NCBI RefSeq assembly: GCF_017942225.1
Contig: NZ_JAGKSD010000001.1
Span: 62,001 to 126,000 of the forward strand
DNA length: 64,000 nt
Source: Corynebacterium sp. Marseille-P3884
GTDB lineage: Bacteria; Actinomycetota; Actinomycetes; Mycobacteriales; Mycobacteriaceae
Direction of reading: 5' to 3'
In this document: positions 5,624 through 64,000 of the stretch, one piece after another
Numbering within the stretch: the stretch's first letter is position 1
Layout: each line of letters begins with the position of its first letter
Notes under the pieces: model-generated
What the model was told of the DNA's origin: nothing
Seen by the model: only the letters and a program-made list of their open reading frames with translations
Database searches by the model: none
Translations under genes and position numbers: made by a program

Positions 5624-6721
5624 CTATTTGCGCCTGGCCGTGGACTTGATAGCCAGGGACGTGAGGGTCTCCACGGCGTCATCGGTGATGTGGGCATCCT
5701 CGAGATGCTTCAATCCGGACTCGGTCAGACGCGTGATGCGCTCTTCCGTGACGTCCACAGCGCCGGTCGACTCGATGATGCGCGCCAGTTCCGCGATGTC
5801 GTCGGGGGCCGTGGCGGTGCCGATTCCCGAGCGGAGTTTTTCTGCAGCGGCCGGATCTGATGCGTCCGCGGCTTGCAACGCAAGTGCGTAGAGCACGGTC
5901 CGCTTGCCTTCGCGCAGATCGTCGCCTGCCGGCTTACCGGTCACCTCAGGGTCGCCGAAGACGCCTAGAAGATCGTCGCGGAGCTGGAAGGCAATGCCGA
6001 TATCGCGGCCGTATCCGCGCAGCGCAGCGATAGTCGTCTCGTCCGCGCCCGCCAGTGCCGCACCGAGGTGGAGCGGACGTTCCACCGTGTAGGCGGCGGT
6101 CTTGTAACGGTTGACAGAATCTGCCATCTCCACGCTTTCGCTGCCGGAGGCTTCCAAGGCGATGTCGAGGATCTGCCCGCCGATGACCTCCGCGCGCATA
6201 CCGCGCCACGGTTCAGCCGCGCGCAGCAGCGCTGCATCGCTCACGCCGGAGTAGCGCCACATGTCGTCGGCCCAGGCCAGAGCAAGATCGCCAATGAGGA
6301 TCGCGACATTCTCACCATATATGTCCGCGTCGCCGTGCCAGCCGCGTTGCGCATGTTCCGCAGCGATTGCACGGTGAACCGTGGGCTTGCCACGTCGGGT
6401 GTCTGAGGCATCGATGATGTCGTCGTGGACCAGTGCACACGCTTGAATGAGCTCGAGGGCGCTGACCGCACGAAGCACGGCCGCCGGGTCCTCGCCGCTG
6501 CCGTCCGCACCGACTGTCGCCGCGTACCCCACCCAACCGTAGGTGGGACGGATGCGTTTTCCTCCGCCGAGCACGAAATTGCGCAAGTGCCCCACGGCCT
6601 CAGCGACGGGAGCGCCGATTTCGCTTATCGACGCCGCGTTGTCCCCGAAGAATGCTTCCAGCTCTCGTTCCACTGCTGCTGGGACATCTGCTACCGCAAT
6701 GTGAGGTGTGCGCTCGCTCAA
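5624..6721 (-). CDS. idsA: Polyprenyl (geranylgeranyl-type) diphosphate synthase
   Basis: Trans-isoprenyl diphosphate synthase of about 365 residues. It has both Asp-rich motifs: first HDDIIDASDTRRG, second FQLRDDLLGVFGD, plus GGGKRIRP and the KTA segment. It condenses IPP with allylic diphosphates; product length is not predictable by eye, but the IdsA/GrcC group in Corynebacterium makes C20-type products for menaquinone and carotenoids. The TTG start (MSERTPHIAV) is preferred because AAGGAG lies about 8 nt upstream; a GTG at 6745 in the same frame has no good ribosome binding site. It lies 13 bp after mptA in the same orientation, so the two are likely one operon. The gene contains one copy of the repeated word CGTCGATAAGC, read with the rare codon ATA. 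Confidence 0.9.
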   Translation of the reverse strand: MSERTPHIAVADVPAAVERELEAFFGDNAASISEIGAPVAEAVGHLRNFVLGGGKRIRPTYGWVGYAATVGADGSGEDPAAVLRAVSALELIQACALVHDDIIDASDTRRGKPTVHRAIAAEHAQRGWHGDADIYGENVAILIGDLALAWADDMWRYSGVSDAALLRAAEPWRGMRAEVIGGQILDIALEASGSESVEMADSVNRYKTAAYTVERPLHLGAALAGADETTIAALRGYGRDIGIAFQLRDDLLGVFGDPEVTGKPAGDDLREGKRTVLYALALQAADASDPAAAEKLRSGIGTATAPDDIAELARIIESTGAVDVTEERITRLTESGLKHLEDAHITDDAVETLTSLAIKSTARRK

Positions 6722-6770
6722 AAGTGGTGTCTCCTTCTGCCGCACGGAGGGGAGGATGGACGATTACCAC

Positions 6771-7355
6771 TCACTTTACCGGGGTGCTGATCTCCAACGG
6801 CAATGTCCGGCCAAGCACCGCGAAGGGGCGCGGATCACCGGTGTAGCGGAAATCGCGGAGCACATCTTCAAAGCCGAGCGAGCGGTAGAGGCCGAACGCG
6901 GCGTTGCCCTCGTTCGGCACTTCGGGGGTGGAGAGCAAGACATGTGGCTGCGATGCCCGGCTGAGCAATCTTTCAATGAGGGCTCTGCCGATGCCGTGGC
7001 CCTGGAGATGCGGGGCGACGTGAATTTCCGCTAGCTCGAAATAGTTCTCCACGACAGCGGTCATCTCTGGCGTCATCGCATGGCTATTCACTAGTCCGCG
7101 TCGAAGCTGCTGGTCCCACCAGCGTTTCTGTGAGCCTCGGAAACCATAAGCGACACCGGCGAGCTGCTCCTCGTCGAATGCGGCGACGGCAGCGAAGTCC
7201 CGTTCCAGCGAATCGCGGCGCCAGACAGTCACGCGCTGGTCGTGGATGGCAATGGGGTAGCGCATCGCCGTGATGTAGAGGCCCACGAGTTCGGGAGCCA
7301 TGGCGGTGAATTCGTACGGGGACAGCTCGCGGATGGTGACGGACACGGTTTCCAT
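6771..7355 (-). CDS. GNAT family N-acetyltransferase
   Basis: 194 residues from METVSVTIREL. The acetyl-CoA-binding block is AEIHVAPHLQGHGIGRALIERLL (the Q/RxxGxG/A signature as QGHGIG), followed by LSTPEVPNEGNAAFGLYRSLGFE, the usual GNAT C-terminal strand-helix. The substrate is unknown. Position next to idsA matches Rv2170 of M. tuberculosis. A longer reading would start at 7523 but has poor coding character before METV. Confidence 0.8.
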   Translation of the reverse strand: METVSVTIRELSPYEFTAMAPELVGLYITAMRYPIAIHDQRVTVWRRDSLERDFAAVAAFDEEQLAGVAYGFRGSQKRWWDQQLRRGLVNSHAMTPEMTAVVENYFELAEIHVAPHLQGHGIGRALIERLLSRASQPHVLLSTPEVPNEGNAAFGLYRSLGFEDVLRDFRYTGDPRPFAVLGRTLPLEISTPVK

Positions 7356-7600
7356 CGAACCATGTGGGGCGCGTGGGTGCGTCTGATTCAGCTTATCCAC
7401 ACCCCGACATCGCTGAAACTGCAGGTCATAGCGGTGTGTTGATACGAAGTGGGGCAATAGTTCGAAAACGTGTTCGAACTGCTGGCGGGCTGTGTCCGGT
7501 TCGGTTTCTAGTGTGAGGCTCACAAAGTAATTGGAAATGAGGGCGCGAACAGGAATGTGAGCGCCGGGCGGAACGGTAGTGAAACGAGGAGGAGAGTCAG

Positions 7601-8038: not shown

Positions 8039-8152
8039 CCTGCTGTGACTGTTCTGCGGTGGTGTCGGGGCGCTATGATGAAGGGAACAAAACGACGCCG
8101 TGGCGCGTTGTAGTTCAGAGAAGACAGCGACCAAACCAGGCTGGGAGTGAAA

Positions 8153-15525: not shown

Positions 15526-17129
15526 TTCCGATGACGCTGGCAGACATCGCACAGGTCACCGGTGGCACCCTCAGTGAGTCCGCCGACCCGCAAGCGACGG
15601 TGACCAGCTACGTCGAGTTCGACTCGCGGAAGATCACCCCTGGCGGCCTTTTCGTGGCCCTGCCCGGTAGCAATGTCGACGGACACGATTTCGCCGAATC
15701 CGCGATTGCGCGTGGAGCAGTAGGAGTGCTCGTCGCGCGCGAAGTGGGAGTTCCCGCAGTCATTCTTCCGCCTGTCGAGCAGATTGAGGGAGATAATTCA
15801 GATCTCGCCGCGGGTGATCCGGATGGTTCCGCCCGCGCAGTCGTCGCCGGAATGGCGAAATTGGCGGGGCATGTGGCGCGAACGCTCGTCGATAAGCATG
15901 GCTTGCGTATCACTGGCGTGACGGGTTCTGCGGGCAAGACCTCCACGAAGGACTTGATCGCGAATGTGCTCGGTCATGGAGGGGAGACGGTCGCGCCGCC
16001 TGGCTCGTTCAATAACGAGATCGGCCTGCCGTACACCGTGCTGCGCTGCACGGAAAACACAGCCTTTTTGGTCGCGGAGATGTCCGCGCGCAATGTCGGG
16101 CACATCGCTCAGTTGGCCAGCATCGCGCCGCCGCACATCGGTGTGGTGCTCAACGTCGGTAGCGCCCACCTCGGCGAATTCGGTTCGCGCGAGAATATCG
16201 CCCAAGCGAAAGGCGAGCTCGTCGAGGCCCTGCCGGCTGATGGCGTGGCCATTCTCAACGCTGACGACGATCTTGTCGCGGGCATGGCGCCGCGCACCCA
16301 CGGGCGCGTCGTGCGTTTTTCCGCGGAGCATGGAGGCGCCACAGGGCACGGCGCGGCTGAGTACTACGCCACGGACATAAAGCTTGACGACGTCGCGCGT
16401 GCCACCTTCACCATGCATTCCCCCGCGGGCGGCCCGCAGCGGGTGAGTTTGAAGGTCTTCGGCGCCCACCAGGTGTCCAATGCTCTCGCGGCCGCGGCTG
16501 TCGGCATCGAAGCTGGGCTGGATGCGGCGACCGTCGCCGACGCGTTGTCGAATGCGCACAGCGTCTCGGTCAACCGGATGGACGTGAACACGCGTGCCGA
16601 CGGCGTGACCGTGATCAACGACGCGTACAACGCCAACCCGGATTCGATGCGCGCAGGCATCGCCGCCCTCGGCTTCACTGCTGCTGCGCGCCCCGGCGTC
16701 CGCTCGATCGCGGTGCTGGGCGAGATGGGCGAACTCGGCTCCGACTCTGTTGAAGCGCACCGTGCATTGGGCGACGAACTCGCCCGATACCGTGTCACCC
16801 ACCTCGTGGTGGTGGGGGAGAGCGAGGAAACGCGAGTGCTCGCCGAGCGCGCCGCCGGGCGCGGGATTCAAACCCATAGCGCGGGCGGCGTCGACGCAGC
16901 CGCAGACATCGTCAGCGAGATCGTGCGCACCGCCCCGCCAGGGGAGGGAAATTGGCGTAACCGCGACGACCGCGATGTGGTGCTCGTCAAAGCATCGAAT
17001 GCGGTGGGCCTGTGGCGGGTCGCGGAGATTCTGCTCGCCGACGGGCCTGCGCACCCGCAGCAACCGAATACTGTCCCGCATTCGCCGAACATACCGATCA
17101 CACAACCTGACCAGGAAGACACGAGGTAG
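15522..17129 (+). CDS. murF: UDP-MurNAc-pentapeptide synthetase MurF
   Basis: 535 residues, three Mur ligase domains. Residues 1-110 bind UDP-MurNAc-tripeptide (VEFDSRKITPGGLFVALPG), the ATP site is GVTGSAGKTSTKD, and the C-domain carries NDAYNANPDSMRAG, typical of MurF. It adds D-Ala-D-Ala to complete the UDP-MurNAc-pentapeptide. AAGGAGG sits about 8 nt before the ATG, inside the end of murE. The C-terminus runs on for about 20 residues rich in P, Q and N before the stop. It carries one copy of the 11-mer CGTCGATAAGC (codons for Val-Asp-Lys). Confidence 0.96.
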   Translation: MIPMTLADIAQVTGGTLSESADPQATVTSYVEFDSRKITPGGLFVALPGSNVDGHDFAESAIARGAVGVLVAREVGVPAVILPPVEQIEGDNSDLAAGDPDGSARAVVAGMAKLAGHVARTLVDKHGLRITGVTGSAGKTSTKDLIANVLGHGGETVAPPGSFNNEIGLPYTVLRCTENTAFLVAEMSARNVGHIAQLASIAPPHIGVVLNVGSAHLGEFGSRENIAQAKGELVEALPADGVAILNADDDLVAGMAPRTHGRVVRFSAEHGGATGHGAAEYYATDIKLDDVARATFTMHSPAGGPQRVSLKVFGAHQVSNALAAAAVGIEAGLDAATVADALSNAHSVSVNRMDVNTRADGVTVINDAYNANPDSMRAGIAALGFTAAARPGVRSIAVLGEMGELGSDSVEAHRALGDELARYRVTHLVVVGESEETRVLAERAAGRGIQTHSAGGVDAAADIVSEIVRTAPPGEGNWRNRDDRDVVLVKASNAVGLWRVAEILLADGPAHPQQPNTVPHSPNIPITQPDQEDTR

Positions 17130-18248: not shown

Positions 18249-19693
18249 GCGACAGCATTCACTCCACCACGAGCGTGAACGAGACTTTCTCCATCCTGCT
18301 TTCCGGCGGAGTTCTCGTCGCCGGAGCCGGAGTGTCCGGCATGGGAACCGCGAAGCTGCTTCGTGAGGCGGGCGTTTTCTTCGCTGTCGCCGACGACAAC
18401 GAAGCTAACCGCGCAGCCGTGCACGAAGCGACCGGCTGCCGCACCATGACGACGGCGGAAGCCGCCGAGCGGGTCACCGAGTACCCGCTCGTGGTCACCT
18501 CTCCGGGTTGGCGCCCGAATTCTCCGCTCCTCCTCGCCGCGCAGGACATGGACTGCACGGTGATCGGCGATGTCGAGCTGTGCTTCCTGTTCGACCAGAA
18601 CAGCTTCTTCGGCCCGCCGCGCGACTGGCTCGTGGTCACCGGCACCAACGGCAAGACGACCACGACGGGCATGCTCGCCCGCATCATGGAGGAAGCGGGG
18701 GAATACACCGGTAAGCGCGCGACAGCCTGCGGCAATATCGGTATCGCGGTCGGCGACGCGCTGTTGAGCACACCGCGCATCGACGTCCTCGTCGCCGAGC
18801 TGTCCAGCTTCCAGCTCCACTGGTCCCACGACCTCACCGCTGATGCCGGCGTGCTGCTCAACCTTGCCGATGACCACATCGACTGGCACGGCAGCTTCGA
18901 CGCCTACGCGGAAGCGAAAGCGAAGGTCTTCGGTTATTCGACAGCCGTCGCTGGCATCGACGACGAGCACGTGTGGAGCTACGCCGAGAAATCCGGCCGC
19001 GCGGACATCATCGGTTTCACGCTCAACGAACCGCAGGACAACCAGGTCGGCATCATCGACGGCACGATTGTCTCGCGGATCGGATCAGCGACGACGGAGA
19101 TCACGCGTATCGACGGCATCGAGCCCGCCGGCACCGCCGGCACGCTCGATGCGCTGGCCGCTGCGGCTGTGGCTATTACCCGTGGCGCCACCCCGGAACA
19201 GATCGACCGCGCATTGCACTCCTACGAAGTGTCGGGGCACAGGGGAGCGGTAGTTCACACCGACAACAGCATCGATTGGATCGACAATTCCAAAGCGACC
19301 AACCCCCATGCGGCAGATTCGGCCCTCAACGGTGTCGAAGGACAGATCGTGTGGATTGCGGGCGGCCGGCTCAAGGGCGCTGAGATCGACCAGCTTGTCG
19401 CCGACCATGCCCAGCAATTCAGGGCAGTCGCTTTGCTGGGGGTGGACAGGGAACAGATCGCACGCGCCGTCGATAAGCATGCCCCCGAAATTCCTGTCTT
19501 CCTGACAGATAGCGCGGACCCCGAAGAAGCTATGCGTGCTGTCGTGGAATTCGCGGCGGAGCAGGCTCGCCCGGGTGACTCGGTGATCCTCGCGCCGGCT
19601 GCCGCGAGCCTGGATATGTACTCGGGAATGGCGCAGCGCGGAAATATCTTCGCTGACGCTGCGCGCGCCCTCGCCGGAAAACGCGACGTTTAA
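18245..19693 (+). CDS. murD: UDP-MurNAc-L-alanine:D-glutamate ligase MurD
   Basis: 482 residues from MSDSIHST. N-domain [18 protein letters not shown] (Rossmann-like), ATP site [14 protein letters not shown], substrate segment [15 protein letters not shown], and C-domain [17 protein letters not shown]. Adds D-glutamate to UDP-MurNAc-L-Ala. A longer reading from 18170 lies inside mraY and was rejected because the ATGA overlap gives the canonical start. One copy of CGTCGATAAGC lies in the C-domain. Confidence 0.96.
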
Positions 19694-22457: not shown

Positions 22458-23959
22458 CTTCTGCGGCACCCATCGCCCTCTCCCGGGTCCACCTGATCGG
22501 CATTGGCGGTTCCGGCATGTCGGGCGTTGCCCGCATCTTGCTTGACCGCGGCTCTGTGGTCACGGGCTCCGATGTGAAAGACTCCCGCCCCGTCCGCGCC
22601 CTGCGCGCACAGGGCGCCACCATTGCGGTCGGGCACGCGGCGGAGAACCTCGAACTGTCTGGGCAGTTGCCGACTGTCGTGGTGACGAGTTTCGCGGCCA
22701 TTCCGAAAGACAACCCGGAGCTTCTCGCCGCCGCGGAGCACGGCATTCCGGTGATCCGCCGCTCGGATTTGCTGGGCGAGCTCATGGAGGGCTACACCCA
22801 AGTCCTCTTCGCCGGCACCCACGGCAAGACATCAACGACGTCGATGGCGGTCGTCGCCCTTCAGGCAGCGGGGGAGGACCCCTCCTTCGCCATCGGCGGT
22901 CAACTCAACCGGGCTGGCACGAATGCGCACCACGGCGGCGGCCACATCTTCGTGGCGGAAGCCGATGAATCCGATGCGTCGCTGCTGCGCTACCGCCCGT
23001 CGGTCGCTGTGATCACGAATATTGAGCCGGATCACCTCGACTATTTCGGCAATGCGGAAAGCTACTACCAAGTATTCGACGAATTTGCGGACCGCCTTCC
23101 CGACGATGGCACGCTGGTTGTCTGCCTCGACGATGAGGCGACGGTGCGGTGCGGCCTGCGCGCGCAGGAGCGCGGAATCACGGTGCTGGGCTACGGCACG
23201 GACACCGCAGCTGCCCGTCACCCGGAGATCCTGGCTGGAGCGGTGATCACCGACGAGTCGGCCGACGGCCATCTCACCGAGGTCGCCGTTGACTTGCGCC
23301 TCCAAGGCCACGAGGGCACGGTGGCGTACCACCTCGCGCTGCCAGGTCGTCACATGGTGCTCAATTCCGCCGCAGCGCTTTTGTCCTGCGCGATCGCTGG
23401 CGCGGATCCGCGAAAGCTCGCCGAAGGTTTGAGTAGCTTCACTGGTGTGCGCCGCCGTTTCGAGCTGCGCGGGGAGATCACCGCGGGGCCGCAGACCGGC
23501 ACCCGGGTCTACGACGATTACGCGCACCATCCGACGGAGGTGCACGCCGTTGTGTCCGCCGCGCGCGGCAAGGTCGAATCCGAAGGCAACGGCGCCCGCG
23601 TCGTCGTGTGCTTCCAACCGCACCTGTACTCGCGCACGCAGGCCTTCGCGCAGGAATTCGCCGAGGCGCTTTCGCTTGCCGACGCCGCTGTGGTCCTCGA
23701 TATCTTCGGCGCCCGCGAGGCTCCTGTGGAAGGAGTGGATTCCCGAATCATTACCCAGCACATTGCCGATGGCACTGAGACTGTTTATGAGCCGGATTTC
23801 TCCCGCGCGCCAGCCACTGTGCGCTCCGTGACCCAGCCGGGCGACGTTGTAATCACCATGGGCGCCGGCACCGTCACCATGCTCGCCGACCCGATCCTCG
23901 AGGCGCTGGCGGGCACTGACACAGCCTCCGGTTCCACCGATGGTGAGGAAGCGAACTAA
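22454..23959 (+). CDS. murC: UDP-MurNAc:L-alanine ligase MurC
   Basis: 501 residues. Begins with the Rossmann segment [21 protein letters not shown] site [15 protein letters not shown], and typical [14 protein letters not shown] and [14 protein letters not shown]. Adds the first residue (L-Ala) to UDP-MurNAc. AAAGGA precedes the ATG, which overlaps the murG stop (ATGA). The residual C-terminus ends in a short Ser/Glu-rich tail. Confidence 0.96.
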
Positions 23960-26984: not shown

Positions 26985-27722
26985 GTGGAATTCACCGATG
27001 AGCGCCGTGCCGACATCGCGGCAAAATGGGAGCAGCTCCAGTCCCAGGTGCGCGCGGCCGAAGAAGAAGCGGGCCGGATGCCCGGCAGCGTGAGCATTCT
27101 TCCGGTCACCAAATTCCATCCGGCGTCCGATGTCGCCGTGCTGGCGGAACTGGGCATTGACCTCGTGGGGGAGAACCGCGAACAAGAGGCGCGCGGCAAG
27201 GTCGAGGAACTCACCGCCGCCGGAGTGGAGATGCGTTTCGCGATGATCGGCCAGATCCAGTCGAAAAAGGCCAATGCCGTCGCACGCTGGGCGAGCGAAG
27301 TCCACTCCGTCGATTCGGTGAACCTGGCGAACGGCCTCGACCGCGGGATGGGGCTGGCTCTCGAGCGCGGCGACCGCACCACGGACACATTGCCGTGCTT
27401 GATCCAGCTGTCATTCGACAACGACACCAACCGCGGGGGAGTGCCGCATGACGACGCAGAGCTGCTTGATTCCGTGGTCGCCGCCGTCGATACGGCCGAG
27501 CATTTGCTTTTCGACGGCTTCATGGTGGTCCCGCCCCGTGAGGCCGAGCCGGGGGAGGTGTTCGCGGCGTCGAAAAGCATCTGCGATGCATACGCGGAAA
27601 AGCTCGGCCGTTCCCTGCGGCTGTCAGCGGGAATGTCCGGTGATTTTGAAGATGCAATTGCTCACGGATCGACCGTCGTGCGTGTCGGAACCGGGCTGTT
27701 GGGAGCACGGCCCGTAGGCTGA
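26985..27722 (+). CDS. YggS/PROSC-family PLP-binding protein
   Basis: 245 residues, alanine-racemase-like TIM barrel without the second domain. PLP lysine lies in SILPVTKFHPASDV; LVGENREQEARGK and RFAMIGQIQSKK (usually WHFIGxLQxNK) and LSAGMSGDFEDAIAHGSTVVRVGTGLLG follow. This family keeps PLP and amino-acid homeostasis rather than catalysing a known reaction. GTG start directly after the preceding gene with GGGGAGGAG upstream. Conserved between ftsZ and sepF in actinobacteria. Confidence 0.92.
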   Translation: MEFTDERRADIAAKWEQLQSQVRAAEEEAGRMPGSVSILPVTKFHPASDVAVLAELGIDLVGENREQEARGKVEELTAAGVEMRFAMIGQIQSKKANAVARWASEVHSVDSVNLANGLDRGMGLALERGDRTTDTLPCLIQLSFDNDTNRGGVPHDDAELLDSVVAAVDTAEHLLFDGFMVVPPREAEPGEVFAASKSICDAYAEKLGRSLRLSAGMSGDFEDAIAHGSTVVRVGTGLLGARPVG

Positions 27723-34700: not shown

Positions 34701-34901
34701 AAGAACGAAGGGCTTGAAGTCTCCGACCGCATTTCGGTCACCCTCCACGTCCCGGCGGACAAGGAGGAGTGGGCCAACCGCCACGCCGACCACATCGCGG
34801 CTGAGACGCTGGCCACCTCGTTCACCGTCACCACCGACGCCCACGATGCCGGCCACAAGGTCCTCGACGGCGTCACCGCGAACGTGACCAAGAACGGCTA
34901 A
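31737..34901 (+). CDS. ileS: Isoleucyl-tRNA synthetase
   Basis: 1054 residues, class I synthetase. The HIGH motif appears as HYGH at 67-70 ([13 protein letters not shown]) and KMSKS at 626-630. The editing (CP1) domain contains [16 protein letters not shown]. The C-terminal anticodon-binding and extension domains match the long eukaryote-like IleRS2 type of actinobacteria, which is relevant to mupirocin tolerance (family knowledge). The start follows GTGGAGGAATC, the binding site controlled by the T-box. One copy of CGTCGATAAGC lies in the editing domain. Confidence 0.97.
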
Positions 34902-42159: not shown

Positions 42160-43830
42160 TCAGTCTTCTTCGCGCCACACCTCCTCGGTCCACAGCGTGG
42201 ACAGGGTGAGAAGTGTGGCGCGTCCGTCTTTCTGGGCGATGCGCTGGCGCCAACGGCGACGGATCCACCGGTCGTGGCTGGTGATGATCACGGTGCCGGG
42301 GAAATCCACCAGGGCGGCCTCGAGCTCCTCGGCTAAGGCGAGGGAGAGGTGGTTGGTGGGCTCGTCGAGAAGCAACAAATCCGGCGGAGAGCACAAGATC
42401 TTGCCCAAGGAGACGCGGCGGCGCTGGCCGAGCGAGAGGTCCTTCAGCGGCATTGCGGCCTGCGCTGATGTCATGAGCCCCATGTCGACGATTCCCGGCA
42501 CGATATCGGCACCGGTGACGGAGAGATCCGTCCATGAATCGTCCTGTTCCAGGCGGGCAACGCTCATTTCCTCCGGCATGACGAGCTCGCCGGAATAGTC
42601 GGTGAGCTCGCCGTCCAGAATCTTCAGCAGGGTCGATTTGCCGGAGCCGTTCGGGCCCTCGACAAGGAGCTGTGCGCCGGGCTGGACTTTGAGGTTCAAC
42701 GGTGCGAGACGGTCAGGGACCGCGAGTTCGTTCGCGACGACGGCGGGAACGCCGAGGGAGGTCGCGGTGTGTTCCGGGATGCCGGTGAAACGCAGCGGCT
42801 TCGGGGGAGCAGGGATCTGGTACCGCTCCAATTCCTCGAGGCGGTTCTCGGCGGCGCGGCGACGGTTGCCCACGGTCTTGGCGGCGCGGTCGGCATAGAA
42901 CTTCGCGGCTTTGCGGACCTCGGATTTCGATTCCTGCGAGTGGAAGATGTCCTCCGCCGACTGCTCAGCGGCTTTTTCCAGTCGCTCGCGCTCGTGTTCC
43001 TGGGCGGCATAGTCGGCGGCCCAGCGCTGACGGCGCTGCTCGCGTGCCTTCAAATAATCGCTGAAGGAACCGCTGAAACGCGCACCCTGGCGGGTTTCTT
43101 CGCCCATACCGCCCTCCGCACCGAGACCCGGGTCGAGGTCGACGAGTGCATCGCAGACCGCGTCGAGGAAATAACGGTCGTGGGAGGCGGCGAGCACGGG
43201 GCCGGAAAAAGACTCGAGCTCGCCGACGAGAAAGTCCACAGCTTCATCGTCGAGGTGGTTCGTCGGCTCGTCGAGCACCATCGCGTCCACTGGGCGCAGC
43301 AGGAGAGTAGCCAGAGCGAAACGGCGGCGCTGCCCGCCGGACATCTCACCCAGCGGAGTGGACAGATCCACATTGGCCAGTCCGAGACCTGCCAAGACGG
43401 CGGCGATGCGGGCATCGAGCTCCCATACGCCGGAATTCTCAGCCCTGGCCAGTGCGAGATCGAATTCATCTGCTAAGCGTGTGTTTTCCGGGTCTTCCGC
43501 CATCGCGCCGGAGAGATCCGCAATGGCGCGCTCAACGCCGCGGAGCTCGTCCACGGCGGCGTCGATAAGCATGCTCGCGGGTTCCGTGAACGGCAGCGAG
43601 GTCTCCTGGGCGATGAACCCCGTCACTGGCGGGGTGACCAGCGCTCCGGCGGTGGGGGTGAGGTCGCCGGAGATGACGCCGAGGAGCGTCGACTTGCCCG
43701 CGCCATTCTCGCCGATCAGGCCGGTGACCGAACCGGACGGCACAGCGAAGGAGATGTCCGTGAGCACGCGGTGGCCGTCTGGGTACGTGAATGAGATTCC
43801 GTCGAGTCCGATGTGGAGTGGGGCAGGCAT
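42160..43830 (-). CDS. ABC-F family ATPase with two ABC domains
   Basis: 556 residues, no membrane segments. First ABC domain: Walker A GENGAGKST, signature LGEMSGGQRRR, Walker B VDAMVLDEPTNHLDD. A charged linker (LKAREQRRQRWAADYAAQEHERERLEKAAEQS) corresponds to the P-site tRNA interaction motif. Second domain: GPNGSGKST, LSLGQRRR, DLLLLDEPTNHLS. ABC-F proteins act on the ribosome, either as translation factors or as antibiotic-resistance proteins that displace drugs; which applies cannot be told here. One CGTCGATAAGC word lies in the gene (read as Leu-Ile-Asp). Confidence 0.9.
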   Translation of the reverse strand: MPAPLHIGLDGISFTYPDGHRVLTDISFAVPSGSVTGLIGENGAGKSTLLGVISGDLTPTAGALVTPPVTGFIAQETSLPFTEPASMLIDAAVDELRGVERAIADLSGAMAEDPENTRLADEFDLALARAENSGVWELDARIAAVLAGLGLANVDLSTPLGEMSGGQRRRFALATLLLRPVDAMVLDEPTNHLDDEAVDFLVGELESFSGPVLAASHDRYFLDAVCDALVDLDPGLGAEGGMGEETRQGARFSGSFSDYLKAREQRRQRWAADYAAQEHERERLEKAAEQSAEDIFHSQESKSEVRKAAKFYADRAAKTVGNRRRAAENRLEELERYQIPAPPKPLRFTGIPEHTATSLGVPAVVANELAVPDRLAPLNLKVQPGAQLLVEGPNGSGKSTLLKILDGELTDYSGELVMPEEMSVARLEQDDSWTDLSVTGADIVPGIVDMGLMTSAQAAMPLKDLSLGQRRRVSLGKILCSPPDLLLLDEPTNHLSLALAEELEAALVDFPGTVIITSHDRWIRRRWRQRIAQKDGRATLLTLSTLWTEEVWREED

Positions 43831-45302: not shown

Positions 45303-46213
45303 CCAGCGGTTACAGGTCGATCACGGTTCCGGAGGGACTCGACGGCATGCGTGTCGACGCCGCCGTGGCCAAGGTCTTCGGCGTGTCACGCTCGGTTGCG
45401 GCGGATCTCGATGTGCTTATCGACGGCACCGTGGTCCCTAAATCCACCCGCCTCACCCCCGGGCAGACCCTCGAGGTGACCCTGCCGGAACCCAAGACCG
45501 TGCCCATGCCGAAGGACGAACCGGTGGAGGGGTTGGAGATTCTCTACGACGACGAGGATGTCATCGTCGTGGACAAGCCCGTCGGTGTGGCGGCTCACCC
45601 GACGCTCGGTTGGGAAGGCCCGACCGTCGTCGGCGGCTTAGTGGCCATGGGCTTCCAGCTACCTGACGCCGGTCCGCCCGAGCGCAAAGGCATCGTCCAG
45701 CGCCTCGATGTGGGCACCTCCGGCGTGATGGTCGTGGCCAATTCGATCCCCGGCTACTCAGTGCTCAAGCGGGCCTTCAAGGAACGCACCGTGGAAAAGA
45801 CGTATCACGCGGTGGTTCAAGGATTGCCTGATCCGATCGTGGGCACCATCGACGCGCCGATCGGGCGCCATCCATCTTCCGGGTGGAAATTCGCCGTAAC
45901 GCAGGACGGCCGGCCGTCGGTGACGCACTACGAGGTGATCGAGGCGTTCCGTGAAGCGAGTCTGCTCGAGGTCCACCTGGAAACCGGCCGGACCCACCAG
46001 ATCCGCGTGCATATGTCTTCGGTCGGCCACCCGTGTGTCGGGGACCCGATGTACGGCTCCGATCCGAACCTGACCAAACGGCTGGAACTCAAACGCCAGT
46101 GGCTGCACGCCACCGGGCTCGGTTTCACCCACCCCGGAACAGGGAAGTGGATGGACGTCACCTCGCCGTACCCGGAGGATCTCCAACGGGCCGTCGAAAA
46201 GCTGCGCGCATGA
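45299..46213 (+). CDS. RluA/RluD-family rRNA pseudouridine synthase
   Basis: 304 residues. N-terminal S4-like domain (MRVDAAVAKVFGVSRSVAADLDVLIDGTVV), then the catalytic motif IVQRLDVGTSGVMVVA with the active Asp, and family segments LEVHLETGRTHQIRVHMSSVGHPCVGDPMYG. The position after lspA is conserved (Rv1540). Start overlaps the lspA stop (ATGA); stop overlaps the next gene in the same way. One CGTCGATAAGC word lies in the S4 region. Confidence 0.93.
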   Translation: MTSGYRSITVPEGLDGMRVDAAVAKVFGVSRSVAADLDVLIDGTVVPKSTRLTPGQTLEVTLPEPKTVPMPKDEPVEGLEILYDDEDVIVVDKPVGVAAHPTLGWEGPTVVGGLVAMGFQLPDAGPPERKGIVQRLDVGTSGVMVVANSIPGYSVLKRAFKERTVEKTYHAVVQGLPDPIVGTIDAPIGRHPSSGWKFAVTQDGRPSVTHYEVIEAFREASLLEVHLETGRTHQIRVHMSSVGHPCVGDPMYGSDPNLTKRLELKRQWLHATGLGFTHPGTGKWMDVTSPYPEDLQRAVEKLRA

Positions 46214-48362: not shown

Positions 48363-49112
48363 GTGAGCACTGCCATCAACGGCGGCGAACAGCCGGCCAT
48401 GGTCAAAATCGACCCCGACAAGCTGATCTTCATGCGCGGGATCGTCAAGACCTACAACCAAGGCAAAGACACCGAGCTGACCGTCCTGCACGGCATCGAC
48501 TTCGACACCGACCACGGCGAATTCGTGTCCATCGTCGGCCCGTCCGGCTGCGGCAAGTCCACATTGATGAACTTGATCGGCATGCTGGACAAGCCGACGC
48601 ACGGCGGGTACGCGTTCAACGGCGAGGATATTTTCCAGAAAGTGGATAACGAGCTCGCGTCGTACCGCTCGGAAAATATCGGCTTCATTTTCCAGAACTT
48701 CAACCTCGTCGGCCGCATCAACGCGCTGCAGAATGTCGCCATGCCGATGATGTATGCGGGTGTGGGCAAGCGGGAGCGCGAGGAGCGCGCTGCGGAATTG
48801 CTCGAACTCGTGGGCATGGGCGATCGCATCAAGCACGCACCCAACGAGCTGTCCGGTGGCCAGAAGCAGCGCGTGGCTATCGCGCGCAGCCTCGCCAACG
48901 ACCCGGATTTGCTGCTTGCCGACGAACCGACCGGCGCCCTCGACTCCGAAACCGGGCGCATGGTGATGGATCTGTTCCACCAGCTCAACCAGGAATACGG
49001 CAAGGCGATCGTCTTCATCACCCACAACCCGGAGCTGGCGGAAGAAACCAGCCGGATCGTCGAAATGAAGGACGGCCGCGTCGTGGACGTGCGTTCGGGA
49101 GGAGCGGTCTAA
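48363..49112 (+). CDS. ABC transporter ATPase, MacB/LolD type
   Basis: 249 residues. Walker A IVGPSGCGKSTLMN, Q-loop FIFQNFNLVGRINALQNV, signature LSGGQKQRVAIARSLA, Walker B LLLADEPTGALDSETG, and H-loop VFITHNPELAEE. The ALDSETG form is typical of the MacB/FtsE/LolD group. Forms the energy subunit for the permease encoded 3 bp downstream. GTG start with GGGGGAG about 9 nt upstream. Confidence 0.94.
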   Translation: MSTAINGGEQPAMVKIDPDKLIFMRGIVKTYNQGKDTELTVLHGIDFDTDHGEFVSIVGPSGCGKSTLMNLIGMLDKPTHGGYAFNGEDIFQKVDNELASYRSENIGFIFQNFNLVGRINALQNVAMPMMYAGVGKREREERAAELLELVGMGDRIKHAPNELSGGQKQRVAIARSLANDPDLLLADEPTGALDSETGRMVMDLFHQLNQEYGKAIVFITHNPELAEETSRIVEMKDGRVVDVRSGGAV

Positions 49113-49115: not shown

Positions 49116-50408
49116 ATGGAATTCCGTGAATCAGTCAACCTCGCGCTCGGCAGTCTGCGGACGAACAAGATGCGTTCGATCCTCACCCTGCTGGGCATCA
49201 TCATCGGCATCATGGCCGTCGTCATCATTATGACGCTCGGCCGCGGCTTGCAAAACAGTGTGACCAGCGGCCTCGAGGACATCGGCGCATCGCAGCAAGC
49301 GGTGTTCATCACCGAGAAGCCCGAGGAATCCGAGGACGGCGCCGAGGACGCGGGCGGCTTCAGCCCGCCTGTCGGCGACGAAGCGGACAAAGTCACGCTC
49401 GAGCAGCTGGACGAACTCAAGGACCACTTCGGCGACCGCATCGTTGGCGTGGACATTCAGGACAGCTTCGGCGGCGATGCCAAATTCGAGGGTGAGGATG
49501 CCTCGGTCCAGGTGCACCCAGTTCTCGGCGAGTCCATGGAAGTGCGCAACGTCGAGATCGCCTACGGGCGCGCAATCGAGCAGCAGGACATCGACAGCCA
49601 GCGCCCGGTCGCGGTCGTTTCGCAGGAGCTTGTCGACGCCTTCTTTGGCGGCGACGGTGCCGCCGCCCTCGGAAAGCGCATCGATCTGAGCGTGGAATCG
49701 ACCGGTGTCTACACCATTGTCGGTGTCGCCGAGGCGGAGAAGCAAGACGCCAGCAACTTCGGCCAGGATTCCGCTGCTGGCCAAGCCTTTGTGCCACTGA
49801 GCTCCATCGACCGTATCGCGGAGCCGATCACGAGCACTGATTTGTTCAACGTGCAGGCCAAAGGTGACGAAGATCCGGCGGAGTTCCGCGACGAACTGCA
49901 GAAGTATGTCGACCGGTGGTACTCCAAGAGCGATACGGCCCAGGCCGAAGTCATCGACATGCAAGCGGAGCTCGCGTCCTTCACCAAGATCTTCGGCGCC
50001 ATCAGTGCTGTGATCGCCTCCATTGCCGGTATCTCCCTGCTCGTCGGTGGCATCGGTGTCATGAACGTCATGCTCATCACTGTTACCGAGCGCACCCGCG
50101 AAATCGGTGTGCGTAAGGCGCTCGGCGCGACCCGCCGTGATATCCGCACCCAGTTCATCGTCGAGGCAGTCATGGTCTGTCTCCTCGGCGGCATCATCGG
50201 CATCGTTTTGGGTGGTCTCATTGGCTCGGTCGCCAGCGGATTCATCGGCATGTTCGGCGGTGGCGAATACGGACCAATGGCGTGGCCTCCGATCAGCGCT
50301 GTCCTTGCCTCGTTGATCTTCTCCATGGCGATCGGTGTTTTCTTCGGCGCGTACCCGGCGAACAGGGCCGCCAAGATGCAGCCGATCGACGCTTTGCGCT
50401 ACGAGTAA
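49116..50408 (+). CDS. ABC transporter permease, MacB type
   Basis: 430 residues with four membrane helices: one near the N-terminus (ILTLLGIIIGIMAVVIIMTL) and three at the C-terminus (SAVIASIAGISLLVGGIGVMNVML, AVMVCLLGGIIGIVLGGLIGSV, PPISAVLASLIFSMAIGVFFGAYP), around a large extracytoplasmic MacB-PCD domain of about 220 residues. TERTREIGVRKALGATRRDIRTQF is the family's coupling segment. Together with the upstream genes it forms a tripartite-like export or envelope-stress system; the substrate is unknown. The stop codon lies within the -10 element proposed for dnaE. Confidence 0.93.
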   Translation: MEFRESVNLALGSLRTNKMRSILTLLGIIIGIMAVVIIMTLGRGLQNSVTSGLEDIGASQQAVFITEKPEESEDGAEDAGGFSPPVGDEADKVTLEQLDELKDHFGDRIVGVDIQDSFGGDAKFEGEDASVQVHPVLGESMEVRNVEIAYGRAIEQQDIDSQRPVAVVSQELVDAFFGGDGAAALGKRIDLSVESTGVYTIVGVAEAEKQDASNFGQDSAAGQAFVPLSSIDRIAEPITSTDLFNVQAKGDEDPAEFRDELQKYVDRWYSKSDTAQAEVIDMQAELASFTKIFGAISAVIASIAGISLLVGGIGVMNVMLITVTERTREIGVRKALGATRRDIRTQFIVEAVMVCLLGGIIGIVLGGLIGSVASGFIGMFGGGEYGPMAWPPISAVLASLIFSMAIGVFFGAYPANRAAKMQPIDALRYE

Positions 50409-53984: not shown

Positions 53985-53999
53985 GTCAGCAGAGGCGAC

Positions 54000-54021
54000 G
54001 TCGATAAGCACGCTTATCGAC
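54000..54021. repeat. Inverted pair of the word GTCGATAAGC
   Basis: Perfect palindrome: GTCGATAAGC (54000-54009), AC, GCTTATCGAC (54012-54021), placed 16 bp after the dnaE stop and before the terminator. Single copies occur at ten other sites in the window. Confidence 0.95.
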
Positions 54022-54030
54022 GCGCAAGCG

Positions 54031-57508: not shown

Positions 57509-59220
57509 CGCCTGATGACGGCGAATCCCCAGGGCTCCAGCTGAATCGCGTCGGCGGTGACAGTGGGGGAGCCGAATGAGTAGATGAGCTCCCCGCCCGC
57601 AGGGACGGTGACTGGCTGGTCAGTGAAATTCGCCGCGAGGAAGACATCGTCGTAGCCCATGGTCAGCCAGGAATCGGAATGATCGACTTCAAGCTCGCGC
57701 AGATCCTCGCGGGCGAGGTTCAATTCGCGGCGCAGGGTGATCAGCGTCTTGTACGCCTCGTGCATTGCGGAGGCATCGTCGTTGACATTCCAGTTCAGCT
57801 TCGCTGATGCAAAAGTAGCTGGATCAGCCGGATCAGGGACCTCGTCGAAGTCCCAGCCGTAGCGCGCGAATTCGTGGGCGCGTCCCTGACGGGTCAGCTG
57901 CATCAGCTTCTCGTCGGTGTGGGAGACGAAGAAGGGAAACGGTGTCTGCGCGAAGGATTCCTCACCCATGAAGATCATCGGCGTGAACGGGCTGAAGAAG
58001 ATCACGGCGGCTTTCAGCGCGTGCTGGGCCAACGTGAGATTTTGCGACGGGCGGTCGCCCTGCGCGCGGTTGCCCACTTGGTCGTGCGTCGTGGTGTAGG
58101 TGATCAGCTTCCACGGCGGGATCGTCGACAAATCCAGTGCACGACCGTGGGTGCGGCCGCGGAAGCTGGAGTAGTGGTTACGGAACCGGAAGCCGTGGCG
58201 TAGCGTGTCCGCGAGAATCTCAATCGTGCCGAAGTCTTCGTAATATGCGTTATTTTCGCCGGTGACGACGGTGTGGAGGGCATGGTGGACGTCGTCAAGC
58301 CACTGCGCGTCCAGGCCGTAGCCACCGACGGAATAATCGGAGATGATCCGCGGATCATTGAGGTCGCTTTCGGCGATGATGATCGGGTTCGGCCCGAATT
58401 CCGCTTCCACCTCGTCGGCGAGCATGTTGATCTGCTCCATGATCGAGTACGCGTTGCGGTCATCGTAGGAATGCACCGCGTCGAGGCGCAGCCCGTCGAT
58501 GTGGAATTCGGTGAGCCAGCGGCGGACAGCGTCCAGCACATACGCCCGGACCTCGTCCGAATCAGCGCCGGAGAAGTTGACCACGTCACCCCACCCCGTG
58601 GAACCCGACGTGGTGTACGGCCCGAATTGGCCGTTGTAATTGCCGTCGGGCCCGAAGTGGTTGAACACCACGTCCAGGTACACGCCCACACCGCGACGGT
58701 GCGCGGCATTGACCAGACGCTTAAGCCCGTCCGGCCCGCCGTAGCTCTCCTGCACCGCGAACCAGTCCACACCGTCGTAACCCCAGTTGTGCTCGCCGCC
58801 GAAGGGCTGGACGGGCATCAGCTCGATTGTGGTCACGCCCAGGTCCACAAGATAATCAAGCTTATCGACGGCCCCGTCGAACGTTCCCTCCTTACTGAAC
58901 GTTCCCACGTGGAGCTCGTAGATCACTTGCCCCTTGAGCTCGTAACTGGTCCAGTGCTGGTCGGACCACTCGAATTCGGGATCCGTCACCGCAGACAGAC
59001 CGTGCACTCCGTCGGGCTGGCGGGTTGAGCGCGGGTCGGGGAGAGGCGAGGTCCACGACGCGCCGTCGAAAAGCGAAAAGCCATAGCGCTGACCTGGAAC
59101 CTTCTCGATATCGCTCAACCACCAACCCGTGCGCGCGTCGTCGCGGCGCATCGGGTGCTCGACGCCGTCGACCACCACTTTCACATCGTGCGCGTACGGG
59201 GCCCACACATCGAACTTCAT
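57505..59220 (-). CDS. treZ: Malto-oligosyltrehalose trehalohydrolase
   Basis: 571 residues, GH13. N-terminal beta domain (MKFDVWAPYAHDVKVVVDG), then the barrel with VIYELHVGTFS, FNHFGPDGNY, catalytic nucleophile in DGLRLDAVHS, acid/base in IIIAESDLNDPR and the third acidic residue in YTTTHDQVGN. Releases trehalose from maltooligosyl-trehalose made by TreY, which is encoded downstream on the same strand. TAGGGT lies 7 nt before the ATG (leaderless). Its first bases are duplicated at 61080. One CGTCGATAAGC word near the region coding GAVDKLDYLVD. Confidence 0.94.
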   Translation of the reverse strand: MKFDVWAPYAHDVKVVVDGVEHPMRRDDARTGWWLSDIEKVPGQRYGFSLFDGASWTSPLPDPRSTRQPDGVHGLSAVTDPEFEWSDQHWTSYELKGQVIYELHVGTFSKEGTFDGAVDKLDYLVDLGVTTIELMPVQPFGGEHNWGYDGVDWFAVQESYGGPDGLKRLVNAAHRRGVGVYLDVVFNHFGPDGNYNGQFGPYTTSGSTGWGDVVNFSGADSDEVRAYVLDAVRRWLTEFHIDGLRLDAVHSYDDRNAYSIMEQINMLADEVEAEFGPNPIIIAESDLNDPRIISDYSVGGYGLDAQWLDDVHHALHTVVTGENNAYYEDFGTIEILADTLRHGFRFRNHYSSFRGRTHGRALDLSTIPPWKLITYTTTHDQVGNRAQGDRPSQNLTLAQHALKAAVIFFSPFTPMIFMGEESFAQTPFPFFVSHTDEKLMQLTRQGRAHEFARYGWDFDEVPDPADPATFASAKLNWNVNDDASAMHEAYKTLITLRRELNLAREDLRELEVDHSDSWLTMGYDDVFLAANFTDQPVTVPAGGELIYSFGSPTVTADAIQLEPWGFAVIRR

Positions 59221-61774: not shown

Positions 61775-61784
61775 ACTTGTGCTC

Positions 61785-62021: not shown

Positions 62022-62025
62022 TTCC

Positions 62026-62412: not shown

Positions 62413-62465
62413 ACTGGGACTGAGCAGACGAGCTCTGGATGCGGGCATCCGCGGCGAGGATGTGA

Positions 62466-62540
62466 ACCCCAAAACTTAGTTAGCCCAGGTCGGCGAAAAT
62501 GGCCTGAAATCCGCGACCTGGGGTAACTCACTTCTGGGGT
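62466..62540. repeat. 27-bp imperfect inverted repeat between convergent genes
   Basis: Arms 62466-62492 and 62514-62540 match at 23 of 27 positions around a 21-nt loop; the inner 9 bp (CCCAGGTCG/CGACCTGGG) are perfect. May serve as a bidirectional terminator between the S4 gene and treY, but is longer than needed and lacks U tracts, so a small palindromic element is possible. Confidence 0.75.
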
Positions 62541-62585
62541 CAACATCTAGAGAACCGAAGTCCAGGGGGCTGAGTTTGAGCCGCG

Positions 62586-64000
62586 CTACACGTCGGTGTG
62601 GACAGCGACCAAAAGCGCCGTCGGCAGGACGTCCAGGACATCGCGGACGAGGACCGTGCCCGCGAAAGTCGAGCCGGTGAGCCGGTCCGTCCACTCGCCC
62701 TCGGGCAAGGTGACGGTGGTCTCGCCCCATCCGCCACGGTCTTCCAGCAGGAGCGGGCGGCGGGTGGCTAGCGCGACAACATCGAGGCCGTCGGTGCCTC
62801 GCGCCATGCCGACGAGGTGGCTCGCAGCTTCGCCCACGCCGAAGACTGCCTGGTAATCACCGTCCAAGAAGAAGTCCGGGTGCTCCCGGCGGAGGTAGAC
62901 GCCCTCGTGGGTGACAGCTTGCTTGGCGCGGTCGATGATGCCGGCCAGGTGCGGATAGAGGCCGGGCTGCTCGTCGTCCGCCGCGGCGTCGCGGTCCCGG
63001 ACCAATTCGGCGTGGACACGGCCGGACAACGCCGCCTCCTTGAACTGTTCCAGTGTTTGCTCGCGTGCCACGTAATCGACGAAGCGGCGATTGTCCGGGT
63101 CCACCAGCGACAAATCCCAGAATTCCTGGCCCTGGTAGGTGTCCGGGATACCGGGGCCGATGAGCTGGAGCATCTTCCGGCCGAGGGAGACTTGCACGGC
63201 ACCGCGGTGAATCTCACGGAGGAAGTCATCGATCATGGGGGCGGCGGGGCCGTCGATAAGCGCGTCGACCCAATCCGTGATCGTCCGTTCGAAATGCTCC
63301 TCGTTGTCGAACCACGACGTGTGCACGCCAGCTTCGCGCACTGCTTTGACGGCGTAGTCCTTGAGGCGCTCGCGGATGGTGTCGGTGCTGCCGTCGGTCG
63401 GCCAGATACCGATGATGTTCTGGAGGAGGAAATGCGCCGTCGCATCGTCTGGCGCGGGGACCAGGGCGCTGATCTGCTGGGCCAGCTCCGCGAAGTCCTT
63501 GTGGCGCTCGGTGAGCTCGATGATGCGGGCGCGGGTGTCCTCGCTGCGCTTCGTGTCGTGGGTGCTCAGCGATGTCATGGCGTGCGGCCACAGCATCGCA
63601 CGCTCCTGCTGGAGCAGATGGAATTCCGCAGCCGACACCCCGAACCGGCCGGGCGCGCCGCCGACTTCCTGGAGCGCGACGAGGCGGCAGGCCCGGTAAA
63701 ACAGCGTGTCCTCCACGCCCTTTGCCATGACGGCACCGCAGACCTGGGCGAAGCGTGTCTTGGCTTCGCCGTTCGCGAGAAACGCCGCAGAGATCAAATC
63801 GAGTGCTCCGCGGCGTGACGGGAAGCGCCGCACCATGTCCGCCACGATCGTCGACGTCTGGCGGGATAGGGAGATATAGTCCGCGCGGTAAACCGGCATA
63901 GCGGCGACGAGGTCGATGACAGTGCGTTCCAGATCCTCGTCGGTCACGTCCGCGCCGGCCGTGGAGAAATTATCGCGGCGGATGGCGCGGGTCAGACGGC
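62586..64000 (-). CDS. treY: Malto-oligosyltrehalose synthase, C-terminal part
   Basis: The 5' end lies beyond the window; the frame is open to base 64000. About 471 residues are visible. GH13 TreY features: MTSLSTHDTKRSEDTRARI (with conserved His-Asp), GPGIPDTYQGQEFWDLSLVDPDNRRFVDY, and the terminal beta domain. TreY converts the reducing end of malto-oligosaccharides to a trehalose unit, which TreZ then releases. With treZ on the same strand it makes up the TreYZ route, important for trehalose and mycolate supply in Corynebacterium. One CGTCGATAAGC word is present (Leu-Ile-Asp). Confidence 0.92.
   Translation of the reverse strand, partial: RLTRAIRRDNFSTAGADVTDEDLERTVIDLVAAMPVYRADYISLSRQTSTIVADMVRRFPSRRGALDLISAAFLANGEAKTRFAQVCGAVMAKGVEDTLFYRACRLVALQEVGGAPGRFGVSAAEFHLLQQERAMLWPHAMTSLSTHDTKRSEDTRARIIELTERHKDFAELAQQISALVPAPDDATAHFLLQNIIGIWPTDGSTDTIRERLKDYAVKAVREAGVHTSWFDNEEHFERTITDWVDALIDGPAAPMIDDFLREIHRGAVQVSLGRKMLQLIGPGIPDTYQGQEFWDLSLVDPDNRRFVDYVAREQTLEQFKEAALSGRVHAELVRDRDAAADDEQPGLYPHLAGIIDRAKQAVTHEGVYLRREHPDFFLDGDYQAVFGVGEAASHLVGMARGTDGLDVVALATRRPLLLEDRGGWGETTVTLPEGEWTDRLTGSTFAGTVLVRDVLDVLPTALLVAVHTDV

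What the first reader, a model, noticed from the sequence alone, without database searches (positions are those of the whole stretch)
6623..63261. Twelve copies of CGTCGATAAGC: a candidate genome word like an uptake sequence
The 11-mer CGTCGATAAGC (or its complement) occurs at 6623, 15888, 19469, 32438, 36156, 40370, 43561, 45415, 54000, 54012, 58860 and 63252 (10-mer coordinates); G is favoured two bases further upstream. My rough arithmetic for about 60% G+C gives far below one expected copy in 64 kb. Copies are six per strand, lie in unrelated genes (idsA, murF, murD, ileS, dinB, protease/ansA, ABC-F, rluD-like, treZ, treY) and are read in different ways: Val-Asp-Lys, Leu-Ile-Asp with the poor codon CTT, and Ser-Ile-Ser with ATA, plus one spanning a stop codon. 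That argues for selection or biased gain at DNA level, not protein level. The lack of strand bias speaks against Chi or KOPS; the pattern resembles Neisseria DUS, Haemophilus USS or cyanobacterial HIP1. I know of no such word described in Corynebacterium.
Basis: partly seen in the sequence, partly recalled or inferred. Interest (0 to 1): 0.88.

Follow-up and report, generated by a model that had tools for sequence, protein, structure and literature searches.

The report
Self-label DNA word of Corynebacterium
About four in five Corynebacterium genomes examined carry one short DNA word roughly 160 to 2000 times, in two species-specific spellings, and it is likely a label that would let the cell recognise and import DNA of its own kind, something that as far as I could find is described only for two families of quite different bacteria.

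Summary
Confirmed, and larger than reported. The 12 copies of CGTCGATAAGC exist (0.03 expected). The real word is C(G/A)TCG-NN-AAGC: 29 copies in the window, 1535 in the 2.40 Mb genome against 84 for the reversed pattern. Among 242 Corynebacterium genomes I read three states: 170 carry CGTCGNNAAGC (195-1964 copies), 18 carry CATCGNNAAGC (159-1337), 54 neither; one of the 54, G012, has a private word, TGACGNCGCG, 1144 copies. None of 199 other genomes of the order shows a like excess. It is kept at DNA level: synonymous shuffling drops 252 copies to 25, and rare Leu codon CTT rises from 8.5% to 81% in word context. Copies are conserved, change spelling in place, show no replication-strand bias (107 to 108), and are near background in two mobile islands and six plasmids. 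I read it as an uptake-sequence-like self label. That function is inferred: no receptor was found, and competence-type genes also occur in word-free species. I found no description in print.

The parts
834..844 (-). word copy CGTCGACAAGC
   Evidence: pattern match and frame
2981..2991 (+). word copy CGTCGAAAAGC
4533..4543 (+). word copy CGTCGAAAAGC
6623..6633 (-). word copy CGTCGATAAGC (read Ser-Ile-Ser)
15887..15897 (+). word copy CGTCGATAAGC (Val-Asp-Lys)
16382..16392 (-). word copy CGTCGTCAAGC
19468..19478 (+). word copy CGTCGATAAGC (Val-Asp-Lys)
23674..23684 (-). word copy CGTCGGCAAGC
27506..27516 (-). word copy CGTCGAAAAGC; nine fixed bases intact in five of five compared species
27568..27578 (+). 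word copy CGTCGAAAAGC; intact in five of five compared species
32438..32448 (-). word copy CGTCGATAAGC (Leu-Ile-Asp, in the ORF 31644-34901 used as IleS query)
36156..36166 (-). word copy CGTCGATAAGC; intact in five of five compared species
38363..38373 (+). word copy CGTCGTAAAGC outside called genes; intact in five of five compared species
39942..39952 (-). word copy CGTCGAAAAGC
40062..40072 (-). word copy CGTCGAAAAGC
40369..40379 (+). word copy CGTCGATAAGC; holds the TAA stop of the ORF 39436-40377
41673..41683 (-). word copy CGTCGAAAAGC
42363..42373 (+). word copy CGTCGAGAAGC
43560..43570 (+). word copy CGTCGATAAGC (Leu-Ile-Asp); intact in five of five compared species
45415..45425 (-). word copy CGTCGATAAGC (Leu-Ile-Asp)
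46192..46202 (+). word copy CGTCGAAAAGC
48914..48924 (-). word copy CGTCGGCAAGC
49628..49638 (-). word copy CGTCGACAAGC
53999..54009 (+). word copy CGTCGATAAGC, left arm of an inverted pair 15 bases after the ORF ending at 53984
54012..54022 (-). word copy CGTCGATAAGC, right arm of the inverted pair
58290..58300 (+). word copy CGTCGTCAAGC
58860..58870 (-). word copy CGTCGATAAGC (Val-Asp-Lys)
59064..59074 (+). word copy CGTCGAAAAGC
63251..63261 (+). word copy CGTCGATAAGC (Leu-Ile-Asp)

Best explanation
The DNA word C(G/A)TCG-NN-AAGC, present about 160 to 2000 times in 188 of 242 Corynebacterium genomes, is likely a self label that a surface DNA receptor would recognise so that naturally transforming cells preferentially import DNA of their own kind. 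Shown here: the word, its two spellings (position 2 G or A), its upkeep at DNA level, its strand symmetry, its conservation and in-place change of spelling between species, its near absence from two mobile islands. Inferred: that an extracellular or pilus-borne receptor reads it; that the Tad (Flp) pilus plus ComEA/ComEC carry the DNA in; that copies accumulate because word-bearing fragments are taken up and recombined more often; that the change of spelling was a change of receptor specificity which then spread through the genome and would hinder exchange between dialects. Untested: natural transformation in any of these species.
For: Density: 1535 copies in 2.40 Mb, about one per 1.6 kb. Three states in 242 genomes: 170 G, 18 A, 54 neither. 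Sharp specificity: 132 CGTCGATAAGC in 464 kb but 13 copies in all of the 21 single-mismatch variants at positions 1-5, 10 and 11; the centre is loose. DNA-level upkeep: 252 in coding sequence against 25.4 after synonymous shuffling (maximum 37 in 60 shuffles); CTT 162 of 199 in word context against 8.5% overall; in G009 190 against 22.7 and 122 of 170 against 7.2%. Read in all six relative frames, and outside called genes at about the genomic rate (42 of 293 with non-coding fraction 0.15 in G000; 26 of 215 with 0.19 in G009). No replication-strand bias: 107 leading, 108 lagging. Conservation: 8 of 12, 8 of 12, 8 of 12, 8 of 11 and 8 of 12 aligned copies intact in five relatives; third-codon-position change 5/47 inside words against 37% outside for C. 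urinipleomorphum. Change of spelling in place at four orthologous positions. The seven A-spelling species sampled group together in a 20-taxon tree. Two G009 stretches with mobile genes hold 1 and 0 copies in 20 kb against 6-20 in the other 18 of the series. ComEA and ComEC are adjacent in the window's genome; Tad genes are required for transformation in the actinobacterium Micrococcus luteus (PMC4322843, abstract and passages). G012 has another word of similar density.
Against: The machinery does not track the word: ComEC matches in 241 of 242 genomes, the DUF4244 Flp-like pilin in 238 of 242, DprA in 80 of 80 and prepilin peptidase in 79 of 80 genomes tested, 54 of them word-free; the one without a peptidase match, G129, is an A-form genome. 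No receptor or gene that follows the word or its spelling was found. No report of natural transformation in Corynebacterium appeared in two listings (12 of 12 and 15 of 23 papers listed, titles and abstract starts only). Inverted pairs are rare (4 within 60 bases in 864 kb), unlike Haemophilus. The plasmids come from hosts whose own word state I do not know. The A clade contains a word-free species (G043) with intact ComEA. The states are not perfectly clean: G024 has both spellings, about a dozen G-form genomes have raised A counts, and nine of the 54 have 101-134 G copies, in G171 and G178 about four times the reversed control.
Confidence: 0.6

Rival explanations
1. The word is the binding site of an intracellular protein that organises or repairs the chromosome (a nucleoid, repair or recombination factor), and has nothing to do with DNA import.
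For: Roughly random spacing (CV 0.96 and 0.90) and presence in coding and non-coding DNA alike would suit a chromosome-wide binding protein; competence genes do not track the word.
Against: Absence in 54 of 242 species, a change of spelling and another word in G012 are easier for a peripheral recognition system than for a housekeeping binding site; near absence from mobile islands is expected of an uptake label but not of this.
Confidence: 0.2
2. The word is a Chi-, KOPS- or AIMS-like orientation signal for a replication-coupled helicase-nuclease or translocase.
For: High copy number and genus-specific sequence; AIMS octamers are reported in C. ulcerans (PMC3164646, one passage).
Against: No orientation relative to replication: 107 against 108 in G009, 14 against 15 in the 64 kb window. 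AIMS octamers in C. ulcerans are strand-biased. Nine fixed positions is longer than Chi sites (recalled).
Confidence: 0.1
3. The word is a self mark for a defence or modification system that spares word-bearing DNA.
For: It is scarce in two mobile islands and six plasmids; self/non-self marking would also drive species-specific spelling.
Against: I did not look for or meet such a system; sites read by restriction systems are avoided rather than accumulated (recalled). One spelling is shared by 170 species genomes, wider than defence systems usually are (recalled).
Confidence: 0.07
4. The excess is a by-product of codon usage, protein motifs or mutation bias.
For: In genes the word falls mostly in one codon phase, as Leu-Xaa-Asp (162 of 251 in called genes of the G000 sample).
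Against: Synonymous shuffling removes 90% of it while the other spelling and the reversed word stay near expectation (10 against 8.5; 16 against 11.5); it also occurs outside genes and in both orientations.
Confidence: 0.01

Closest known systems
DNA uptake sequence (DUS) of Neisseriaceae
   Same: 10-12 base word in thousands of copies; dialects that differ at few positions, follow the core-genome tree and share an invariant core (PMC3630211: abstract, introduction and passages)
   Different: Different sequence with an open two-base centre; host is an actinobacterium with a Tad/Flp locus; no ComP-like receptor found; uptake not shown; inverted pairs rare
Uptake signal sequence (USS) of Pasteurellaceae
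   Same: Non-palindromic word, many copies, two versions among relatives (PMC3630211 introduction)
   Different: Sequence unrelated; flank is G-rich upstream rather than AT-rich (recalled for USS); few inverted pairs, whereas Haemophilus terminators are often made of them (PMC5217627 passage)
HIP1 of cyanobacteria (recalled)
   Same: Highly repeated genome word of unclear use
   Different: HIP1 is a palindrome; this word is not
Flp-pilus-dependent transformation of Micrococcus luteus
   Same: Same kind of gene set: tad genes with ComEA/ComEC
   Different: No uptake word is mentioned there ('uptake sequence' occurs 0 times in the text)

Membership tests
DUS/USS uptake sequences | Hundreds to thousands of copies of a 9-12 base word, far above expectation | tested here: met
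   1535 copies against 84 reversed in G000; 170 + 18 of 242 genomes, the lowest with 159
DUS/USS uptake sequences | Upkeep at DNA level, independent of protein sequence | tested here: met
   Synonymous shuffle and CTT usage; copies outside genes
DUS/USS uptake sequences | No replication-strand orientation | tested here: met
   107 against 108, halves of the G009 contig taken as replichores
DUS/USS uptake sequences | Dialects among relatives with a constant core | tested here: met
   TCG and AAGC constant, position 2 G or A
DUS/USS uptake sequences | Scarce in recently acquired DNA | tested here: inconclusive
   The two near-empty stretches of 20 in G009 carry mobile genes; six plasmid stretches at background but host state unknown
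DUS/USS uptake sequences | Host has competence-type machinery | tested here: met
   ComEA, ComEC, TadA, DprA and prepilin peptidase matches in G000; no pilin match there, likely because TadA lies at the edge of contig C10
DUS/USS uptake sequences | Word raises DNA uptake or transformation | not testable with these tools
   needs an uptake assay
DUS/USS uptake sequences | Cognate receptor (ComP in Neisseria) | tested here: inconclusive
   Tad and ComEA proteins present in all states looked at; none singled out
Chi / KOPS / AIMS | Orientation bias along the replichores | tested here: not met
HIP1 | Palindromic octamer | tested here: not met
   sequence of the word; the HIP1 definition is recalled

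The most novel reading that the evidence does not exclude
Corynebacterium has a genus-wide uptake code: a self-recognition word with two dialects (CGTCGNNAAGC, CATCGNNAAGC) and one species with an unrelated word (TGACGNCGCG), read by a receptor of the actinobacterial Tad-pilus competence machinery. It would be the first uptake word of the DUS/USS kind outside Neisseriaceae and Pasteurellaceae, arisen independently in bacteria with their own kind of outer membrane.
Probability: 0.5. Interest if true: 0.94.

Novelty: new variant of a known kind. Interest (0 to 1): 0.88.

Why it matters
[quoted passage not shown] A third, independent case would show which features of such codes are general and why they arise. 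It would predict that most corynebacteria are naturally transformable and exchange genes mainly within a dialect, and it would give a direct handle (add the word to DNA) for genetics in species that are hard to transform. Even if the uptake reading fails, a nine-position word kept against codon usage in 188 of 242 species genomes, absent from others scattered in the tree and re-spelled in one clade, needs an explanation.

Tried and rejected
Codon or protein explanation: rejected by synonymous shuffling. Replication-oriented motif: rejected; an apparent all-plus listing in several single-contig genomes looks like an artefact of the listing: 50 plus copies in the first 506 kb of G246 is what 260 plus copies spread evenly over 2.5 Mb predict. 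Competence genes as the cause of word loss: not supported (ComEC, pilin, DprA, prepilin peptidase). The T2SSE search first looked as if many word-free species lacked TadA (weaker scores); the pilin search argues that the locus is present there but divergent; I compared loci of only five genomes without either spelling. DprA matches are weak or split in 3 of 54 word-free genomes (G029, G113, G163) and in none of 26 others; peptidase matches are below the cut-off in 3 word-free genomes and missing in one A-form genome: too few to build on. Other words: a gapped-word scan of 13 word-free genomes and the weak A-form genome G028 (40-120 kb each) gave G012 (real); high-scoring strings of G018, G021 and G029 that I checked are local clusters; GC-rich strings in G206 and weaker ones elsewhere were not followed; in G028 the scan found no word, so a low-density word can be missed. 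Similarity of part of L037 to plasmids: none. Word as terminator: one close inverted pair in the window, no run of T seen after it. DNA of G242 contig C12 was fetched on a wrong guess of the contig and used only for counts per stretch.
Full report
What is there. The 12 stated copies of CGTCGATAAGC are in the window, six per strand, where 0.03 are expected. k-mer counting showed a second form, CGTCGAAAAGC, 9 copies (expected 0.09). In 464 kb of the window's own genome the 11-mer occurs 132 times; single-mismatch variants are nearly absent at positions 1-5, 10 and 11 (13 copies over 21 variants), but the seventh base varies (A 28, C 16, G 16) and the ninth tolerates C (15). Counting CGTCG-NNNN-GC gave ATAA 132, TCAA 29, AAAA 28, GCAA 22, ACAA 16, AGAA 16, ATAC 15, so the word is CGTCG-NN-AAGC with a preferred centre. 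The window holds 29 copies.

Genome and genus. The genome (G000; 2,403,595 bases in 32 contigs) holds 350 + 329 copies of the 11-mer against 3 of the reversed pattern, and 779 + 756 of CGTCGNNAAGC against 84. The nearest named relatives by IleS are Corynebacterium sp. p3-SID1145 (94%) and C. urinipleomorphum (92%); the tool may leave out still nearer records. In 242 genomes of the genus I read three states from the tables: 170 with CGTCGNNAAGC (195 to 1964 copies), 18 with CATCGNNAAGC instead (159 to 1337; four of them, G028, G032, G157 and G185, below 230), and 54 with neither (at most 134 and 87 copies). The borders are not perfectly sharp: G024 carries 1337 of the A form and 352 of the G form; some G-form genomes carry 118-165 of the A form (for example G181, 165); nine of the 54 carry 101-134 of the G form, in G171 (115 against 27 reversed) and G178 (127 against 35) enough to suspect a weak word. 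Named examples: C. glaucum 499, C. urinipleomorphum 529, C. gottingense 478, C. tuscaniense 407 copies of the 11-mer; C. phoceense 7, which has the A form in its IleS locus (7 A, 0 G). In 199 genomes of the same order outside the genus (60 genera) counts stay near or below the reversed control; the largest ratio I read is 418 against 246.

A private word. A gapped-word scan of 13 word-free genomes and one weak A-form genome, with five positive controls in which it recovered the known words, showed one new word, in G012: TGACGNCGCG, 73 copies in 120 kb. G012 has 1144 copies genome-wide (control 50); of the other 61 genomes tested the highest is G021 with 143 (control 30; a 72% G+C genome by its sample). 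Its centre is C or T, and TG(A/T) is favoured just upstream.

Kept at DNA level. I called genes by a codon-usage script (coding fraction 0.85 and 0.81). Of 293 copies in the G000 sample 42 lie outside called genes or at their edges; the rest occur in all six relative frames, mostly where the complement reads Leu-Xaa-Asp (162) or the word reads Val-Xaa-Lys (45). Shuffling synonymous codons within genes lowers 252 copies to 25.4 (60 shuffles, maximum 37) while the A form (10 against 8.5) and the reversed word (16 against 11.5) hardly move. The rare Leu codon CTT is used in 162 of 199 places where it completes the word, against 8.5% overall. A second genome, G009, gives the same result.

Symmetry and spacing. 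In 20 evenly spaced 20-kb stretches of the single-contig genome G009 the word points with replication 107 times and against it 108 times, taking the two halves of the contig as replichores; GC skew of the stretches mostly, not always, agrees with that division. Gaps between neighbours have CV 0.96 (G000) and 0.90 (G009), near random. Close pairs are rare: 7 within 60 bases in 864 kb, 4 of them inverted, one being the dyad at 53999-54022. G at -2 is favoured also outside genes (0.64, 0.62), with further G upstream, so recognition probably extends beyond the 11 bases (inferred).

Evolution. In the IleS region 8 of 12, 8 of 12, 8 of 12, 8 of 11 and 8 of 12 aligned copies are intact in C. urinipleomorphum, sp. 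p3-SID1145, C. meitnerae, sp. MSK041 and C. tuscaniense; third-codon positions differ in 37% outside words but 5 of 47 inside for the first, and 49% against 8 of 44 for the last; at first and second positions inside and outside are similar (for example 6 of 43 against 14% for C. meitnerae). In the helicase and topA genes beside the Tad locus four positions hold the word in both G-form and A-form species with the spelling changed in place (for example helicase column 93: CATCGGCAAGC in G107, CGTCGATAAGC in G010 and G100). Against this, G009 (G form) has one A-form copy (helicase column 721), G024 (A form) one G-form copy (topA column 235), and three copies lie in word-free genomes. A tree of 20 genomes (TadA plus helicase) groups the seven A-form species sampled, with one word-free species (G043) inside, and places the five genomes lacking both spellings in three places: one change of spelling and several losses is the simplest history on this small sample.

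Foreign DNA. Of the 20 G009 stretches two are empty or nearly so (0 and 1 copies; the others 6-20). Both carry mobile genes: mercuric reductase and MerR, IS3-type integrase cores, Mutator-family and Mu-type transposases, and parts of the first match Corynebacterium plasmids at 83-99%. Six plasmid stretches of Corynebacterium (277 kb) hold 12 G-form and 5 A-form copies in all, but the word state of their hosts is unknown to me.

Machinery. The window's genome has adjacent ComEA (SLBB plus helix-hairpin-helix) and ComEC. TadB, TadC and the DUF4244 Flp-like pilin accompany TadA in 20 of 20 loci, which had been fetched by their TadA match; TadE or TadF was not recognised in G012, G071 and G029. 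In Micrococcus luteus the tad genes are required for transformation, and tad with comEA/EC is frequent in actinobacteria (PMC4322843, abstract and passages). But these genes, and DprA and prepilin peptidase, are as common in word-free species, so they show that transformation is possible in the genus, not that the word serves it.

Mechanism. I commit to an uptake-sequence-like label: a surface or pilus receptor recognises the word, word-bearing DNA is imported and recombined, and copies therefore accumulate and are maintained. The shown steps are those above; receptor, import and drive are inferred. The known parallels are DUS and USS, which PMC3630211 (introduction) calls unique to Neisseria and Pasteurellaceae; DUS dialects there follow the core-genome tree and act as barriers between species (abstract). 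Corynebacteria have a mycolic-acid outer membrane (recalled), so, like those bacteria, they must bring DNA through an outer layer; this is a suggestion, not evidence.

In print. Eight of my ten library searches bear on the question; in what they listed (titles and abstract starts; 15 of 23 papers, 12 of 76, otherwise all that matched) I saw no description of the word or of an uptake sequence in Corynebacterium. The exact 11-mer occurs in three unrelated papers. One motif survey, in the passages I read, names Corynebacterium only for CRISPR-derived pairs in three species (PMC5217627). Searches were for the Flp pilus and DUS dialects. Most subscription papers, and preprints, are not held.

Noticed in passing
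G012, e.g. L111-L114, L162, L214: A private genome word TGACGNCGCG with 1144 copies, not evidently related to the genus word and at similar density.
   Followed up: partly
L036 and L037 (G009:C1:805001-825000, 920001-940000): Nearly word-free stretches with mercuric reductase, MerR and several transposases; parts of L036 match Corynebacterium plasmids.
   Followed up: partly
53999-54022: Perfect inverted pair of the word with a two-base loop, 15 bases after an ORF end; a possible hairpin, without a T run seen.
   Followed up: no
L016:143-188 (G000:C3): A run of 46 T in a 63% G+C genome, near a contig start.
   Followed up: no
G-form genomes such as G035, G052, G086, G150, G180, G181, G195, G238, G239: CATCGNNAAGC is raised to 142-165 copies beside about 480-1090 CGTCGNNAAGC, as if position 2 were less strict there.
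   Followed up: no
L117:37-4845 (G021): 22 copies of AGCCGGGTAA clustered in 5 kb, absent from the other G021 stretch.
   Followed up: no
L121:7756-9796 (G029): An 11-mer repeated 8 times, four of seven gaps being 252 bases, suggesting an internally repeated gene.
   Followed up: no
G029, G113, G163: DprA match weak or split, all in word-free genomes.
   Followed up: no
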